A program made the translations under genes and the position numbers. DNA of 64,000 bases from Mycobacterium dioxanotrophicus. GTDB taxonomy: Bacteria > Actinomycetota > Actinomycetes > Mycobacteriales > Mycobacteriaceae. This document shows positions 1,506 through 18,704 of the stretch, one piece after another; positions within the stretch are counted from its first letter, which is position 1; each line of letters opens with the position of its first letter. The notes beneath the pieces were generated by a model. It was not told where the DNA came from, ran no database searches, and was given only the letters and a program-made list of their open reading frames with translations. Where the stretch lies: positions 5,642,001 to 5,706,000 of the forward strand of contig NZ_CP020809.1 of the NCBI RefSeq assembly GCF_002157835.1, read 5' to 3'.

Positions 1506-2132
1506 TCACGTCTGGTCGGTACCGCTGTCACGCAGCATGGCGAGGGTCACCGCTCCACGCCGGATGGCCTCGTTGGCCAGACGAACTCGGCGCTCCCCCT
1601 CGGGGGCTATGCCAAATTTGTCGTACAGGTTCTGCAGATGCTGTTTGATGGCGGCCTCGGTGACGAAGAGTTCCTGGGCCATCTGACGAACCGATACCGC
1701 CTCGGGAAACGGGTCGCCGGACACCAGCGGGCGACACAGGACGACCAGAACCTCGAGTTCGCGCCGGGTGAGGTGCGGAGGAGGCTGGGTTGGGGCGACA
1801 GAAACCGTTTCTTCGGCAGTCGTCGTCTGGTCGGCTTCCTTCACCTGCCAGAAGACCAACCGTGACTTGCCAATCCGCAATTCGTCTCCCGAACGCAGGA
1901 CCCGTTCGGCAGAGATCTTCTCTCCGTTGAGGTACGTGCCGTTACGACTGCCCACGTCGCGTATCGACCAGGCAAACCCGAGATTTTCCAAGACGGCGTG
2001 CACTCGCGAGACGGTCGAGTCGTGATCGAGCGACACGAGATTGGTCGAGGACTTGCCGACGGTCACCCGTTCGCCGCCCAGTGAGATCAGCTCCCGTCCT
2101 GATGGTCGCCAGATTTCCAGGTGGGAAGGCAT
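1506..2132 (-). CDS. FHA domain-HTH (LuxR/GerE-like) transcriptional regulator
   Basis: This 208-residue protein has an N-terminal FHA phosphothreonine-binding domain at about residues 22-96, with VGKSS, SRVH and SRNGTYLNG as the canonical G, S-x-x-H and N-G positions. A Pro/Thr-rich linker follows, then a GerE-like helix-turn-helix at about 121-195 (LTRRELEVL, VTEAAIKQHLQNLYDKFGI). It is probably a DNA-binding regulator that docks a phosphorylated partner. It begins only 9 bp after the aminotransferase stop on the same strand, so it is the last gene of operon 1 and a good candidate for pathway-specific control. No strong ribosome binding site is visible before the ATG, so translation may be coupled. 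The DNA target is unknown; the repeated element upstream of both operons is the obvious candidate. Confidence 0.85.
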   Translation of the reverse strand: MPSHLEIWRPSGRELISLGGERVTVGKSSTNLVSLDHDSTVSRVHAVLENLGFAWSIRDVGSRNGTYLNGEKISAERVLRSGDELRIGKSRLVFWQVKEADQTTTAEETVSVAPTQPPPHLTRRELEVLVVLCRPLVSGDPFPEAVSVRQMAQELFVTEAAIKQHLQNLYDKFGIAPEGERRVRLANEAIRRGAVTLAMLRDSGTDQT

Positions 2133-2141
2133 GTCGACAGC

Positions 2142-3230
2142 TTATTGGCCGTCGGTCTCGACGAGTCGCATCCAGCCGAATTCGTCCGAAGCGCGGCCAT
2201 GGTGGATGTCGAGCATTGCCGCACGCAGGCGCGACGTGACGGGACCCGCGACACCGTCTCCCACCGGCCAGTCCCGATGAGCGCCAACCACATGCCCGAC
2301 CGGGACGATCGAGCGCGCGGTGCCACACGCGAACGTCTCGGCGATACGCCCGTCCCGGCAGCCTTGCTCCCACTCGTCGAGCGTGACCGGCTGCTGAACC
2401 ACCGGGAGGCCGAGCGATCGCGCCAACCGCAGGATCGAGTCTCGGGTGATACCCGCCAGCAGGGTTCCGCTCAACGGAGGCGTGTTCAGGCGCGGCCCGT
2501 CAGCAGTCGACTCGACGAAGAACAGGTTGCAGCCGCCCGCTTCCTCGATGAAGCGACGCTCGCGGGCGTCCAGCCACACGACCTCGTCGCAGTCATTGGC
2601 CGCGGCCTGTCGCTGGGCGACGAAGGCGCCGCCGTAGTTGCCGCCGCACTTGGCCGCACCGGTTCCGCCCGGCGCGGCACGGATGTACTCGGGTGCTGCC
2701 CACAACCGCATCGGATTCGGCTCCACGGACGCTGGCCGCGCCGGCGTGCCGATCACGGCGAACAAGTACTCCTCGGCAGGCCGCAGGCCCAGGCCCGTCT
2801 CCGCCGCGATCATGAACGGCCGCAAGTACAAGCTGTGCCCGCGAGGGCGTGGCACCCAGTCGCCGTCGACACGCAGAAGCGCCTCCAGCGCCGCGACGAA
2901 GTGCTGCTCGGGCAGCGTGGGCATGGTCAGCCGGCGCGCCGACCTGTTGAACCGGCGGGCGTGGTCGGTGGGCCGGAAGAGGGCCCGCTGACCGTTCGCG
3001 CGCCAGAACGCCTTCATGCCCTCGAAAATCGTCTGGCCGTAGTGCAATGCCATGGTGGCCGGGTGCAGCGACATCGCGTCGAGCGGACCGACTTTGGCGT
3101 CGTGCCAACCCATCTCGGCGGACCACCGCATCGTCACCATGTGATCAGAGAAGACGTCACCGAAGCCGGGCGTCGCGAGCACTTCTTCGCGCCGCCTGGC
3201 CGAGAGTGGCTGTACAGCAGCATCATTCAT
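2142..3230 (-). CDS. Class IV PLP aminotransferase (IlvE-like)
   Basis: This 362-residue protein is an IlvE-family branched-chain-type aminotransferase. The PLP lysine is Lys194 in AAKCGGNYG, and the family glutamate-containing segment EEAGGCNLFFV and the cofactor-phosphate segment LSGTLLAGITRDS are present. AAGGAG sits seven bases before the ATG, and the start overlaps the end of the lyase gene by 8 bp, so the genes are coupled. Because the cluster encodes all other steps to 4-aminophenylpyruvate, I infer that this enzyme transaminates it to 4-amino-L-phenylalanine. A housekeeping branched-chain role is less likely because mycobacterial ilvE lies elsewhere, in a different context. Sequence alone cannot settle substrate choice. 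Confidence 0.85.
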   Translation of the reverse strand: MNDAAVQPLSARRREEVLATPGFGDVFSDHMVTMRWSAEMGWHDAKVGPLDAMSLHPATMALHYGQTIFEGMKAFWRANGQRALFRPTDHARRFNRSARRLTMPTLPEQHFVAALEALLRVDGDWVPRPRGHSLYLRPFMIAAETGLGLRPAEEYLFAVIGTPARPASVEPNPMRLWAAPEYIRAAPGGTGAAKCGGNYGGAFVAQRQAAANDCDEVVWLDARERRFIEEAGGCNLFFVESTADGPRLNTPPLSGTLLAGITRDSILRLARSLGLPVVQQPVTLDEWEQGCRDGRIAETFACGTARSIVPVGHVVGAHRDWPVGDGVAGPVTSRLRAAMLDIHHGRASDEFGWMRLVETDGQ

Positions 3231-16907: not shown

Positions 16908-17248
16908 CAGGCAGCGCTCCCGTCGATGCCCGCGCCGATGATCAGATCCTCGATACGGCAGGTCTCCCCGATGATCAGGTCGTAGAGCTGCTTCATGAAT
17001 GCCTGATCCAGACCGTTGGCCTCGGCGAAGCGCGCGGCCCGCTGCTGCACCACGCCGATGCGGTGTGGTTGCATCATCGGCACGCCGTGCTCGCGCTTGT
17101 ACTGGGCGATGTTGCGGCACACCGCGACACGCGCGCCGAGTGCCCTGAGGAACTCCGCGTCGATCCGATCGAGGTCGGCGCGCAACGTCTCAAGAGTGTC
17201 TTGATCGGCTTCCTGCCTGGCCACTGCCAGGCCTGCCATGTCTCTCAT
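16907..17248 (-). CDS. papB: AroQ-type chorismate mutase (candidate 4-amino-4-deoxychorismate mutase, PapB)
   Basis: This 113-residue all-helical AroQ mutase has an N-terminal helix with [20 protein letters not shown], the YKREHG segment with conserved Lys, and a C-terminal helix ([12 protein letters not shown]). Alone it would be called chorismate mutase. Adjacent papA and papC indicate that it rearranges 4-amino-4-deoxychorismate to 4-amino-4-deoxyprephenate. The first gene of the operon ends 70 bp upstream, the largest gap within operon 2. The stop overlaps the papA start by one base. Confidence 0.88.
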
Positions 17249-17318
17249 AACTTGATCTCCTCTTCACGGCGATGTCTTCTCGGAGCGCTCCGGAGGTCCC
17301 GGGCGCCAAAGGCTTTCG

Positions 17319-18704
17319 TCAAATACCGGCCTGGTAGAGGACCGGCACCTTCCCGCGCTGTGAGCGTGCGAACTGGTCGATGTCCGCGCGCTGCACCTCG
17401 AAATCGAGGCACCGGGGGCTCACGATCACCTCGTGGATCTCGTGGGCGCCGTGCAGAGCCGTCCGCGCCGCATCAGTCGTGATGCCTTCCGGTGCGGCCC
17501 GCGACAACAGCAGCCGCACCCGGTATTTGTGGCCATCCCACAGCACCTGAAGTTGGCAATCGGTGGAGCTCGACACACCCAATGTGGCGAGCGCCGCCAC
17601 GAGATGGTCACTGGAGAACGTGATGGTGTCGACGGTCATCGAGGACGGCATGCGGCCGAGGAGCAGGACCGACCGGGCGGCGCTCCCGCATGCGCATCGG
17701 CCGGTCATCAGCTGGCCCCTGTCGCCGAGCCGATAACGGAAGAGCGCCATCCCGGACGTCGTCAACGGTGTGACGACGAGCTCGCCGGGTGCTCCGGCAC
17801 GCACCGGCCGACCGGTCTCGTCGACGACCTCCAACACGTTCGCGTCCTCGTGCAGGTGGTGCACCGCGCCCGACTGGTGGCGGCACTGGTACCCCACGGG
17901 GCCGGTCTCCGACGTCGAATAAGCCAGCGAGCGCACGACGAGATCCGGTGCGGCAGAGCGCAGGACACGCTCCCGTTCGGCTCCCAGCGATTCACCGATG
18001 AACAGGAAGTTCCGCAGCGGCAGCCGATGCCCGGACAGCAGCTCCGCTCCGTACGCAGGCGACGCCACCAGTGTGTCGATCCCATGGGCGTCGATGATTG
18101 CTGCGGCGTCGGCGGGCGCGGTGTACTCGCCCATCGCGAAGGACAGGGCCGGCAGCGAGCGCGCGATGTCCTGGACGAACAGGAACGCACCGTTGAGGTC
18201 CCCGGGGAACAGGCAGTTCGCCACCCGGTTCGGCGCCGTGGCCAACGCAGCCCGCACGCCGCGCGCGCCCAGATGCTGGACCCGGTCGGTGAAATCCCAT
18301 GAGTGGTAGAGAATTTTCGGTCGGCTGGCCGTTCCGCTCGATCGCAGCACGAGCCCGGGGCTGTGGTCGAAGAGGAGGTCGGCCGAATGCGGTGGGCAAC
18401 CCGCGGCGAGGTCGGCGGCGGAGAGGAGAGGCAGCGCCGCGAGGTCATCGACCGTCTCGACTGCCTCGAGTCCGGGGAAACGCCGCCACACGTTGATGGA
18501 CTGGCGCGCGGCTGCCAGGGTGGCACGCAGATTGTGCTGTTGTGCGGCGTCGATCTCGTCGCGCGTGAACGAGTCGAGGTTGTGGGCCAGGCGGATACCT
18601 GCCACGTCGCGGACCCGCGGCTTGCTTGCGCGACTGCCCGCCGTCGCGGCGCCGTCGGCCCGATGTTGCGGAATCGACGCCGTATCGGCTGGGTACGTGG
18701 TCAT
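17319..18704 (-). CDS. PaaK-like adenylate-forming enzyme (phenylacetate-CoA ligase family)
   Basis: The 461-residue protein resembles the phenylacetate-CoA ligase branch of the ANL family: LRSSGTASRPK as P-loop, YSTSETGPVGYQC, and RYRLGDRG followed by TGRCACGSAARSVLLLGRMP. This branch activates aryl or short carboxylates, either to CoA thioesters or as AMP esters. It is the first gene of operon 2, directly after the shared promoter element, and is separate from the second ligase at 10943. A plausible role is to activate an aryl acid derived from the 4-aminophenyl route for the oxoamine synthase or for amide formation. The N-terminal 30 residues look disordered and could be shortened if a later start is used. 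Confidence 0.8.
   Translation of the reverse strand: MTTYPADTASIPQHRADGAATAGSRASKPRVRDVAGIRLAHNLDSFTRDEIDAAQQHNLRATLAAARQSINVWRRFPGLEAVETVDDLAALPLLSAADLAAGCPPHSADLLFDHSPGLVLRSSGTASRPKILYHSWDFTDRVQHLGARGVRAALATAPNRVANCLFPGDLNGAFLFVQDIARSLPALSFAMGEYTAPADAAAIIDAHGIDTLVASPAYGAELLSGHRLPLRNFLFIGESLGAERERVLRSAAPDLVVRSLAYSTSETGPVGYQCRHQSGAVHHLHEDANVLEVVDETGRPVRAGAPGELVVTPLTTSGMALFRYRLGDRGQLMTGRCACGSAARSVLLLGRMPSSMTVDTITFSSDHLVAALATLGVSSSTDCQLQVLWDGHKYRVRLLLSRAAPEGITTDAARTALHGAHEIHEVIVSPRCLDFEVQRADIDQFARSQRGKVPVLYQAGI

What the first reader, a model, noticed from the sequence alone, without database searches (positions are those of the whole stretch)
1506..18704. Gene cluster combining the PapABC 4-aminophenylalanine route with a CreDE nitrous-acid route
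The sequence shows papA-like (PIKGT fusion), AroQ mutase and TyrA-type dehydrogenase genes, an aminotransferase and a type I-beta DAHP synthase, together with a CreE-like flavoenzyme, a CreD-like lyase and a CreM-family ligase. The first set makes 4-aminophenylalanine in known pathways (pristinamycin, chloramphenicol). The second set makes nitrite from aspartate and uses it for diazotisation or N-nitrosation (cremeomycin, fosfazinomycin). I know of no characterised mycobacterial pathway that joins the two. A free 4-aminophenyl group has no ortho oxygen to stabilise a diazo quinone, so the product could instead be a triazene, azo, N-nitroso or hydrazone compound, or the diazonium could be an intermediate in removing the amine.
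Basis: partly seen in the sequence, partly recalled or inferred. Interest (0 to 1): 0.92.

Follow-up and report, generated by a model that had tools for sequence, protein, structure and literature searches.

The report
Putative aryl-diazonium amino-acid gene cluster
A mycobacterium carries one tightly packed gene cluster that looks able to make an unusual aromatic amino acid, make nitrite from aspartate, and use the nitrite to build a reactive nitrogen-nitrogen group on that amino acid, a combination for which I found no described product.

Summary
Thirteen minus-strand genes (18704 to 1506; 7 of 12 junctions overlap) encode a 4-aminophenylalanine module (ADC synthase with PIKGT, AroQ mutase, TyrA-type dehydrogenase), DAHP synthase, aminotransferase, an aspartate N-hydroxylase (55% identical to the solved enzyme, 13 of 13 named residues kept), a nitrosuccinate lyase (54% to CreD, 12 of 12 kept) and a diazotase-like ligase (best titled fold matches: CmaA6, Tri17). 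Also present: ATP-grasp ligase, alpha-oxoamine synthase, PaaK-like ligase, MFS-FHA transporter, and at the edge a Ser/Thr kinase with a Kelch propeller.

The combination is not only mycobacterial: forms of it occur in Amycolatopsis, Actinokineospora and Streptomyces. In a related diazotase clade the para-amine module is replaced by an anthranilate-synthase-like enzyme (3 of 5 loci read), which suggests that the diazotase acts on the cluster's own arylamine. The ATP-grasp is 58% identical to the one in an azaserine-type cluster.

Best reading: the ring amine of 4-aminophenylalanine, or of a derivative, is diazotised and the product coupled by the ATP-grasp. Substrate, coupling and final compound are inferred. 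A relative's structure (9xb8) is already deposited. Novelty: new variant of a known kind.

The parts
17319..18704 (-). PaaK-like adenylate-forming ligase (461 aa), first gene of the cluster
   Evidence: NCBIfam DVU_1553-type CoA ligase 107 bits (cut-off 300), Pfam AMP-binding below its cut-off; of 16 genomes searched, the 9 mycobacterial ones with the full cluster hold a 79-92% identical copy, the other 7 none above 37%
16907..17248 (-). AroQ-type mutase (papB-like, 113 aa)
   Evidence: CM_2 65.6 bits; TIGR01803 above cut-off
14832..16907 (-). papA-like ADC synthase, glutaminase plus synthase fusion (691 aa), PIKGT motif
   Evidence: GATase, Anth_synt_I_N, Chorismate_bind; pabB TIGR00553 367.9 bits, cut-off 328.4; motif; other PabB/TrpE/glutaminase-like genes lie elsewhere in the genome
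13906..14835 (-). TyrA-type dehydrogenase (papC-like, 309 aa)
   Evidence: PDH_N, PDH_C above cut-off
12680..13909 (-). Alpha-oxoamine synthase (PRK07505 subfamily, 409 aa)
   Evidence: NF005697 370.9 bits, cut-off 342; nearest solved sequences are annotated KAPA synthase and KBL; of 12 genomes searched, the 9 full-cluster mycobacteria hold an 87-95% copy, the other 3 none above 34%
10943..12637 (-). ATP-dependent diazotase-like ANL ligase (564 aa)
   Evidence: NF058622 AvaA6 345.7 bits; solved sequences 9xb8 722.8, 8ztz (CmaA6) 285.2, 8tf7 (Tri17) 247.7 bits, next ligase 88.6; fold search top four entries CmaA6 and Tri17
9159..10946 (-). MFS transporter with C-terminal FHA domain (595 aa)
   Evidence: MFS_1 88 bits, FHA 25.3 bits (cut-off 20.7)
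7837..9162 (-). ATP-grasp carboxylate-amine ligase (441 aa)
   Evidence: ATP-grasp_4 67.5 bits; nearest solved sequence L-amino acid ligase BL00235, 45.8 bits; 58% identical to the ATP-grasp of an azaserine-type cluster
6622..7653 (-). DAHP synthase type I-beta (343 aa)
   Evidence: NF006421 389 bits, TIGR01361 344.7 bits, both above cut-off
4644..6608 (-). CreE-type L-aspartate N-hydroxylase (654 aa)
   Evidence: 55.2% identity to 8cp2 over 596 positions; 13 of 13 named residues kept
3223..4647 (-). CreD-type nitrosuccinate lyase (474 aa)
   Evidence: 54.0% identity to 5xny CreD over 452 positions; 12 of 12 named residues kept
2142..3230 (-). IlvE-type class IV aminotransferase (362 aa)
   Evidence: TIGR01123 318 bits, above cut-off
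1506..2132 (-). FHA-domain protein with C-terminal GerE-like HTH (208 aa), putative regulator
   Evidence: FHA 63.6 bits; GerE 23.2 bits, just below its cut-off of 23.5
1..1444 (+). C-terminal part of a Ser/Thr protein kinase with a Kelch propeller, convergent to the regulator; starts upstream of the window
   Evidence: Kelch_1 245 bits in the window part; whole gene on L103 with Pkinase 137.4 bits plus Kelch; a Kelch match above 200 bits lies in 10 fetched loci (L001, L002, L004, L005, L006, L007, L011, L013, L014, L082; L082 and L011 appear to be one contig) but not in L012, which has the cluster

Best explanation
One operon-like cluster makes a para-diazonium (or directly derived N-N) aromatic amino acid. 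(1) DAHP synthase feeds the shikimate route; ADC synthase, mutase and dehydrogenase make 4-aminophenylpyruvate, and an aminotransferase, the cluster IlvE or a housekeeping one, gives L-4-aminophenylalanine. (2) The CreE-type enzyme oxidises L-aspartate to nitrosuccinate and the CreD-type lyase releases nitrite. (3) The diazotase-like ligase activates nitrite with ATP and diazotises the ring amine of 4-aminophenylalanine or a derivative. (4) The ATP-grasp ligase joins the resulting amino acid, through its carboxylate or amine, to a second amino acid; the MFS-FHA protein exports it. In the mycobacterial version the PaaK-like ligase and the alpha-oxoamine synthase add a further acyl extension. 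The kinase-Kelch protein and the two FHA proteins control expression and export. Shown by sequence: gene content, order, active-site conservation in (2), family placement in (3). Inferred: every reaction as such, the substrate of (3), all of (4), the final compound and the control circuit.
For: Gene overlaps at 7 of 12 junctions. CreE-type: 55.2% to the solved aspartate N-hydroxylase, 13 of 13 residues. CreD-type: 54.0% to CreD, 12 of 12 residues, including the E/H dyad and a Leu that non-nitrating members replace by His (residues from passages of PMC13411527). Diazotase: after 9xb8, the top solved matches by sequence, and the top four entries by fold, are the diazotase CmaA6 and the N-nitrosating Tri17. 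Linkage: of 394 genomes of the class, 7 (own included) hold a diazotase of at least 50% identity, and all 7 have papC, and papA where the short locus reaches it, next to it; the same 7 hold the ATP-grasp at 50% or more, with 1 further genome having the ATP-grasp but no diazotase at that level (Fisher p about 3e-14, assuming the two draws are the same genomes and not corrected for kinship). Module swap: in the diazotase tree five loci without PapABC form one clade (100/100) inside a 27-row clade (100/100) that otherwise holds PapABC-linked ligases, though the inner fork that nests them is weaker (89/81); the 3 of the 5 whose region I read carry a PLAGT-type (anthranilate-synthase-like) enzyme where papA has PIKGT: amine source differs, nitrite and diazotase stay. 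ATP-grasp: its clade (92/92) also holds the protein of an azaserine-type cluster, azaserine being an alpha-amino acid with a diazo group.
Against: No product is known and nothing was assayed. The diazotase does not reach the AvaA6 model cut-off (345.7 against 975), nor the lyase its own (517 against 650). IlvE is kept in the five clusters without PapABC nearby and was not found in the fetched stretches of L018, L020, L079, L104, L106, L107 and L108, so its role in 4-aminophenylalanine formation is doubtful. The azaserine authors speculated that AzsJ may not be involved in azaserine biosynthesis (PMC10445470, passages). Of the 11 genomes with an ATP-grasp match, two (L111, L112; 41%) show no nitrogen-nitrogen gene that I recognised by eye in 20 kb. 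An unsubstituted aryl diazonium is unstable, so it may never be the end product. In the genome of L020 the lyase match lies on another contig beside a second CreE-type gene.
Confidence: 0.6

Rival explanations
1. Diazotisation is only a step to remove or replace the ring amine (as in avenalumic acid and p-coumaric acid), or to reduce it to an arylhydrazine that is then acylated; the product carries no diazonium.
For: The nearest characterised diazotases by model and structure come from the diazotisation-dependent deamination clusters (AvaA6, CmaA6). A free para-diazonium has no ortho oxygen to stabilise it. Rv2466c-type (mycothiol-dependent nitroreductase family) genes lie near three related clusters (L018, L020, L010).
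Against: Among the 13 cluster proteins I saw no reductase other than the papC-like dehydrogenase, and no polyketide or 3,4-AHBA family at E up to 0.001. Making 4-aminophenylalanine only to remove the amine would be wasteful. I had no AvaA7 sequence to search with.
Confidence: 0.2
2. The nitrite and the diazotase act on another amine (for example an alpha-amino ketone made by the alpha-oxoamine synthase, or an N-hydroxy or hydrazine group), and 4-aminophenylalanine is a separate, untouched building block.
For: Tri17, a close fold match, nitrosates a hydrazone and accepts several amines and hydrazines (PMC11705231, passages). The cluster has an alpha-oxoamine synthase that could supply another amine.
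Against: No close alpha-oxoamine synthase (34% at most) is in the genomes of L018, L020 and L079, and none was found in the fetched stretches of L104 and L106-L108, although these keep papC, diazotase, CreE and CreD (the lyase lies elsewhere for L020). In the three loci read, the arylamine module is exchanged, not lost, where PapABC is missing.
Confidence: 0.15
3. The diazotase-like protein is an ordinary acyl- or aryl-CoA ligase and the nitrite is used non-enzymatically or for signalling or defence.
For: It belongs to the ANL superfamily, the usual catalytic motifs (recalled) are present in the alignment, and the solved relative is deposited as FadD.
Against: Scores of 285 and 248 bits (CmaA6, Tri17) against 89 for the best other ligase; it groups with ligases found beside CreE genes (a tree without generic CoA ligases).
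Confidence: 0.05

Closest known systems
ava (avenalumic acid) and cma (p-coumaric acid) clusters with diazotases AvaA6 and CmaA6
   Same: CreE/CreD nitrite supply plus an ATP-dependent diazotase acting on an arylamine; diazotase of the same family
   Different: Their amine comes from 3,4-AHBA; they use a type II polyketide system and an enzyme that removes the diazo group (PMC10777205, first part); the window has PapABC and none of these families
cre (cremeomycin) cluster: CreE, CreD, CreM
   Same: Aspartate to nitrosuccinate to nitrite, then ligase-type diazotisation
   Different: An ortho-hydroxy aminobenzoate substrate gives a diazoquinone (PMC11705231, passages); that cre lacks PapABC, ATP-grasp and alpha-oxoamine synthase is recalled
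PapABC modules of pristinamycin and chloramphenicol (recalled)
   Same: ADC synthase, mutase and dehydrogenase for 4-aminophenylalanine
   Different: Those pathways do not use nitrite or a diazotase (recalled)
azs (azaserine) cluster, AzsJ ATP-grasp protein
   Same: The window ATP-grasp and the one in a cluster with azs-like gene order (L109) are 58% identical and fall in one clade; the AzsJ sequence itself was not compared
   Different: Azaserine takes its N-N bond from lysine N-hydroxylation and a cupin-MetRS hydrazine synthetase, not from nitrite
PDB 9xb8/9xbs (deposited as fatty-acid-CoA ligase FadD)
   Different: No paper for these codes in the library; the entry is not in the fold library's rows, so its title, source and ligands were not seen

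Membership tests
Aspartate-nitrosuccinate (CreE/CreD) nitrite pathway | L-aspartate N-hydroxylase with the Arg/Asn entry chamber and FAD/NADPH site | tested here: met
   13 of 13 residues named in PMC10404684 passages kept, 55.2% identity over 596 positions
Aspartate-nitrosuccinate (CreE/CreD) nitrite pathway | Nitrosuccinate lyase with E/H dyad, SS-loop, Leu170 and Arg341 | tested here: met
   12 of 12 residues kept, 54.0% identity over 452 positions; numbering anchored on the SS-loop
Aspartate-nitrosuccinate (CreE/CreD) nitrite pathway | Reaches the curated cut-off of the nitrosuccinate lyase equivalog model (650 bits) | tested here: not met
   517.2 bits, though the best of 16 families
Aspartate-nitrosuccinate (CreE/CreD) nitrite pathway | Groups with CreE/FzmM and CreD/FzmL in a tree | not tested
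   those sequences were not at hand; identity and residues were used instead
Aspartate-nitrosuccinate (CreE/CreD) nitrite pathway | Nitrite actually formed from aspartate | not testable with these tools
   needs an enzyme assay or 15N feeding
ATP-dependent diazotases (CreM, AvaA6, CmaA6, Aha11; Tri17 type) | ANL ligase nearer to proven diazotases than to CoA ligases | tested here: met
   scores and folds
ATP-dependent diazotases (CreM, AvaA6, CmaA6, Aha11; Tri17 type) | Reaches the curated cut-off of the AvaA6 equivalog model (975 bits) | tested here: not met
   345.7 bits: same wider family, not an AvaA6 equivalog
ATP-dependent diazotases (CreM, AvaA6, CmaA6, Aha11; Tri17 type) | Diazotises an amine with ATP and nitrite | not testable with these tools
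   needs an enzyme assay
PapABC 4-aminophenylalanine module | ADC synthase (PIKGT) rather than anthranilate synthase (PIAGT type) | tested here: met
   PIKGT in the window; of 30 sources scanned 20 have PIKGT, 3 PLAGT, 7 no match; meaning of the motif recalled
PapABC 4-aminophenylalanine module | Mutase and TyrA-type dehydrogenase adjacent to papA | tested here: met
PapABC 4-aminophenylalanine module | Mutase and dehydrogenase prefer the amino-substituted substrates | not testable with these tools
   needs an enzyme assay
ava/cma diazotisation-dependent deamination clusters | 3,4-AHBA synthesis genes and type II polyketide genes | tested here: not met
   no such family at E up to 0.001 in the 13 cluster proteins
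ava/cma diazotisation-dependent deamination clusters | AvaA7-type denitrification enzyme | not tested
   no AvaA7 sequence was at hand
AzsJ-type ATP-grasp ligases | Same clade as the ATP-grasp in an azaserine-type cluster | tested here: met
   22-row clade holding L109, support 92/92, below the tool's starred threshold; L109 gene order agrees with the azs table in PMC10445470

The most novel reading that the evidence does not exclude
The window belongs to a widespread, undescribed family of pathways that diazotise chorismate-derived arylamines with biosynthetic nitrite and interchangeable amine modules (para via PapABC, ortho via an anthranilate-synthase-type enzyme), and that release an unstabilised aryl-diazonium or arylhydrazine amino acid as a short peptide made by ATP-grasp ligases, a diazo-warhead counterpart of bacilysin. 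In mycobacteria the pathway would be under a dedicated Ser/Thr kinase and FHA-domain control system that includes the exporter itself.
Probability: 0.35. Interest if true: 0.85.

Novelty: new variant of a known kind. Interest (0 to 1): 0.65.

Why it matters
Few enzymes that build nitrogen-nitrogen bonds are characterised, and the paper searches listed here showed no pathway joining a dedicated 4-aminophenylalanine route to enzymatic nitrite. If step 3 holds, nature makes an aryl diazonium on an amino acid, a group chemists use for protein labelling (recalled), without the ortho oxygen that stabilises cremeomycin-type diazo compounds; how the cell tolerates and uses it would be a direct question. 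The spread across several actinobacterial genera, the exchange of amine modules and the shared ligase with an azaserine-type cluster turn one odd cluster into a testable family.

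Tried and rejected
Considered and set aside: (a) ordinary aromatic amino-acid metabolism: other PabB/TrpE/glutaminase-like genes lie elsewhere in the genome, and papA overlaps mutase and dehydrogenase. (b) The PaaK-like ligase as the diazotase: its best models are DVU_1553-type and PaaK ligases, and no diazotase model is in its list. 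(c) choD as part of the cluster: it sits upstream in L116 (G131) as in the window, but not in L081 or L083, which reach 4.2 and 2.5 kb upstream of the PaaK-like gene. (d) Promoter scan: no sigma-70-like site in 1300-18900 (shuffles 1.0 on average), 8 terminator-like sites against 5.8 expected; nothing usable. (e) A search for six PDB codes (9XB8, 9XBS, 8ZTZ, 9IJF, 8CP2, 8TF7) gave four listings, two of them relevant (for 8CP2 and 8TF7), none for 9XB8, 9XBS, 8ZTZ or 9IJF. (f) The fold library ends in April 2026 and showed no 9xb8 row. (g) Left unused: two protein-database searches, one structure prediction, one paper search. The functions of the alpha-oxoamine synthase and the PaaK-like ligase were not pursued.

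Results that lean against are in the Against line. Rows dropped or not independent: loci are the best 80 of 141 confirmed, with flanks of at most 10 kb and several cut by contig ends. The tree left out four loci by name (L084, L085, L086, L103), hits under 40 bits or 35% coverage and pieces under 300 residues; that kept 45 of 53 hits (140 bits, 80% coverage), leaving out eight loci as duplicates or short. In one search, L088 is labelled without PapABC only because its short locus holds just part of papC. Gene calls in fetched loci are from my own simple caller and some are wrong. By eye, without a family search: LarE, LarB, NarK, P450, NRPS, FAD oxidase and cupin-MetRS-carrier labels in L008, L104 and L109, and all labels of L111 and L112 except the FemAB-like one of L111.

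Full report
What is there. Gene calling by codon-position composition and ORF listing gives thirteen minus-strand genes between 18704 and 1506. Junction distances are 70, -1, -4, -4, 42, -4, -4, 183, 13, -4, -8 and 9 bases, so seven of twelve junctions overlap. Pfam and NCBIfam identify, in order: PaaK-like ligase, AroQ mutase, papA-type fusion, TyrA-type dehydrogenase, alpha-oxoamine synthase, diazotase-like ANL ligase, MFS transporter with an FHA domain, ATP-grasp ligase, DAHP synthase, CreE-type flavoenzyme, CreD-type lyase, IlvE-type aminotransferase, and an FHA protein with a weak GerE-like HTH. The Kelch gene at the window's left edge is the end of a Ser/Thr kinase-Kelch gene; a Kelch match accompanies the cluster in most but not all mycobacterial loci (not in L012).

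Nitrite supply. The CreE-type protein aligns over nearly its whole length with 8cp2, the Streptomyces sp. V2 L-aspartate N-hydroxylase, 55.2% identity over 596 positions. Thirteen residues named in passages of PMC10404684 (Arg13, Trp51, Asn62, Arg266, Arg276, Arg409, Arg412, Asn413, Arg416, Val571, Arg577, Arg593, Arg597) are all identical. The CreD-type protein is 54.0% identical to CreD (5xny), and twelve positions named in passages of PMC13411527 are all identical once the numbering is anchored on the SS-loop, including the E49/H118 dyad, reported there only in enzymes able to catalyse hydronitration, and Leu170, which non-nitrating relatives replace by His. The lyase misses its equivalog cut-off (517 against 650). 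Formation of nitrite itself is inferred.

Who else has it. Of 141 confirmed CreE relatives in genome contigs the best 80 were kept. Thirteen of the 80 loci hold a papA of at least 60% identity, and two more hold papC without papA inside the locus (L014, L079). The mycobacterial form, with alpha-oxoamine synthase and PaaK-like ligase, recurs at roughly 73-97% identity per full-length gene; both of these genes were found in 9 of 9 such genomes among those searched. In one of them about 4 kb lies between papA and papC. No close PaaK-like or alpha-oxoamine gene is in the genomes of L018, L020 or L079; for L104 and L106-L108 only the fetched stretches were searched. Streptomyces gelaticus (L065) has mutase, papA, CreE, CreD and a distant (34%) diazotase. 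Of 394 genomes of the class, 15 have a ligase match at E up to 1e-60 and 7 reach 50% identity; all 7 have papC beside it. In what appears to be the same draw, 8 genomes have the ATP-grasp at 50% or more: those 7 and one other. The Fisher value (3e-14) ignores kinship.

Module swap. Five loci (L008, L010, L015, L016, L017) carry diazotase, DAHP synthase, CreE, CreD and IlvE but no PapABC in the locus. In the diazotase tree they are one clade (100/100) within a 27-row clade (100/100) whose other members are PapABC-linked or 9xb8; the inner fork that nests them is weaker (89/81). In the three whose region I read (L008, and L113 and L114 from the genomes of L010 and L017) the chorismate enzyme has PLAGT where papA has PIKGT; a glutaminase gene follows it in L008. 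The simplest reading is that the arylamine source was exchanged while nitrite supply and diazotase stayed, which makes the arylamine the likely substrate. That the PLAGT enzyme makes anthranilate is inferred from the motif and general knowledge of the family.

The ATP-grasp ligase. Its nearest solved sequence is the L-amino acid ligase BL00235 (45.8 bits). One genome holds a 58% identical protein in a different setting (L109). By family search: lysine N-hydroxylase, MFS, saccharopine dehydrogenase, AlaDh/PNT N-terminal domain, acyl-CoA dehydrogenase and an iron-containing redox enzyme; by eye: FAD oxidase, cupin-MetRS-carrier protein, NRPS and P450. This agrees in content and order with the part of the azs table that I saw in PMC10445470, where the ATP-grasp protein is AzsJ. 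A 41% relative (L110) lies beside a lysine N-hydroxylase, a MetRS-like and a divergent (33%) CreE-like gene. In the tree, L109 falls within the 22-row clade of PapABC-linked ligases (92/92). Azaserine is an alpha-amino acid with a diazo group, so I infer that this ligase couples N-N-bearing amino acids into peptides, for release or for self-protection. Against this, the azs authors speculated that AzsJ may not be involved in azaserine biosynthesis, and two 41% relatives (L111, L112) show no N-N gene that I recognised.

How it most likely works. 4-Aminophenylalanine is made, nitrite is made from aspartate, the ring amine (of the free amino acid or a derivative) is diazotised, and the product is coupled and exported. 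The chance that the arylamine is the diazotase substrate I put near 0.7; with the peptide step, near 0.4; the overall statement carries 0.6 with its steps marked. IlvE may serve another step.

Literature. I saw search listings, the first of four parts of PMC10777205, and passages of PMC11705231, PMC10404684, PMC13411527, PMC11429834, PMC10445470 and PMC13061610. No paper holding aminophenylalanine, diazotization and biosynthetic gene cluster together was found (0 papers). The library lacks most subscription journals and preprints, so absence there is weak evidence. A solved relative (9xb8) shows that some group works on this diazotase lineage. Pristinamycin, chloramphenicol and bacilysin details are recalled.

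Noticed in passing
L008, L010, L015, L016, L017, L113, L114: A related cluster type with the same diazotase clade, CreE/CreD, DAHP synthase and IlvE, a PLAGT-type chorismate enzyme (in the three regions read), ATP-grasp genes, a DUF362 and a cyclase-family protein (both family-tested in L017), and a protein (GSP_synth match in L010) whose C-terminus reads NTCLFTC in L010, L015 and L016; L008 also has a LarC-type nickel insertion gene.
   Followed up: partly
window 1-1444 and L103 4187-7441; window 1506-2132; window 9159-10946: A Ser/Thr kinase with a Kelch propeller converges on an FHA-HTH protein, and the exporter itself carries an FHA domain: a possible phospho-signalling circuit dedicated to the cluster.
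   Followed up: partly
L109 (G417 C24 44001-64000): An azaserine-type cluster whose ATP-grasp protein is 58% identical to the window's; it offers a test of what AzsJ does.
   Followed up: partly
L065 (Streptomyces gelaticus) 1553-21890: Another CreE/CreD cluster with mutase and papA but a distant diazotase (34%), a lysine 2,3-aminomutase-like radical SAM protein and NRPS-like genes by eye: apparently a separate joining of 4-aminophenylalanine and nitrite chemistry.
   Followed up: no
L111 and L112 (20 kb each): A 41% ATP-grasp relative sits beside a FemAB-like gene and, by eye, DegT-, ArgC-, transketolase- and LysX-like genes, recalling carrier-protein (AmCP) amino-acid clusters (recalled resemblance only).
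   Followed up: no
L018 2243-2842, L020 2629-3372, L010 14475-15089, L110 14604-15239: Rv2466c-type genes (mycothiol-dependent nitroreductase family) lie near several of the related N-N clusters; whether they act on the N-N group is unknown.
   Followed up: no
L115 (G135 C32 120001-131000): In one mycobacterial genome about 4 kb, with hydrolase-like genes by eye, lies between papA and papC.
   Followed up: partly
G356 C32 138676-140094: A creD match in a related genome is reported with one in-frame TGA; described only.
   Followed up: no
G125 C5 97855-101802: The genome of L020 (Actinokineospora auranticolor) holds a second CreE/CreD-type pair on another contig.
   Followed up: no
window 57142-62159: Serine dehydratase, serine hydroxymethyltransferase and an FAD-dependent oxidoreductase lie close together, probably ordinary serine/glycine metabolism.
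   Followed up: no
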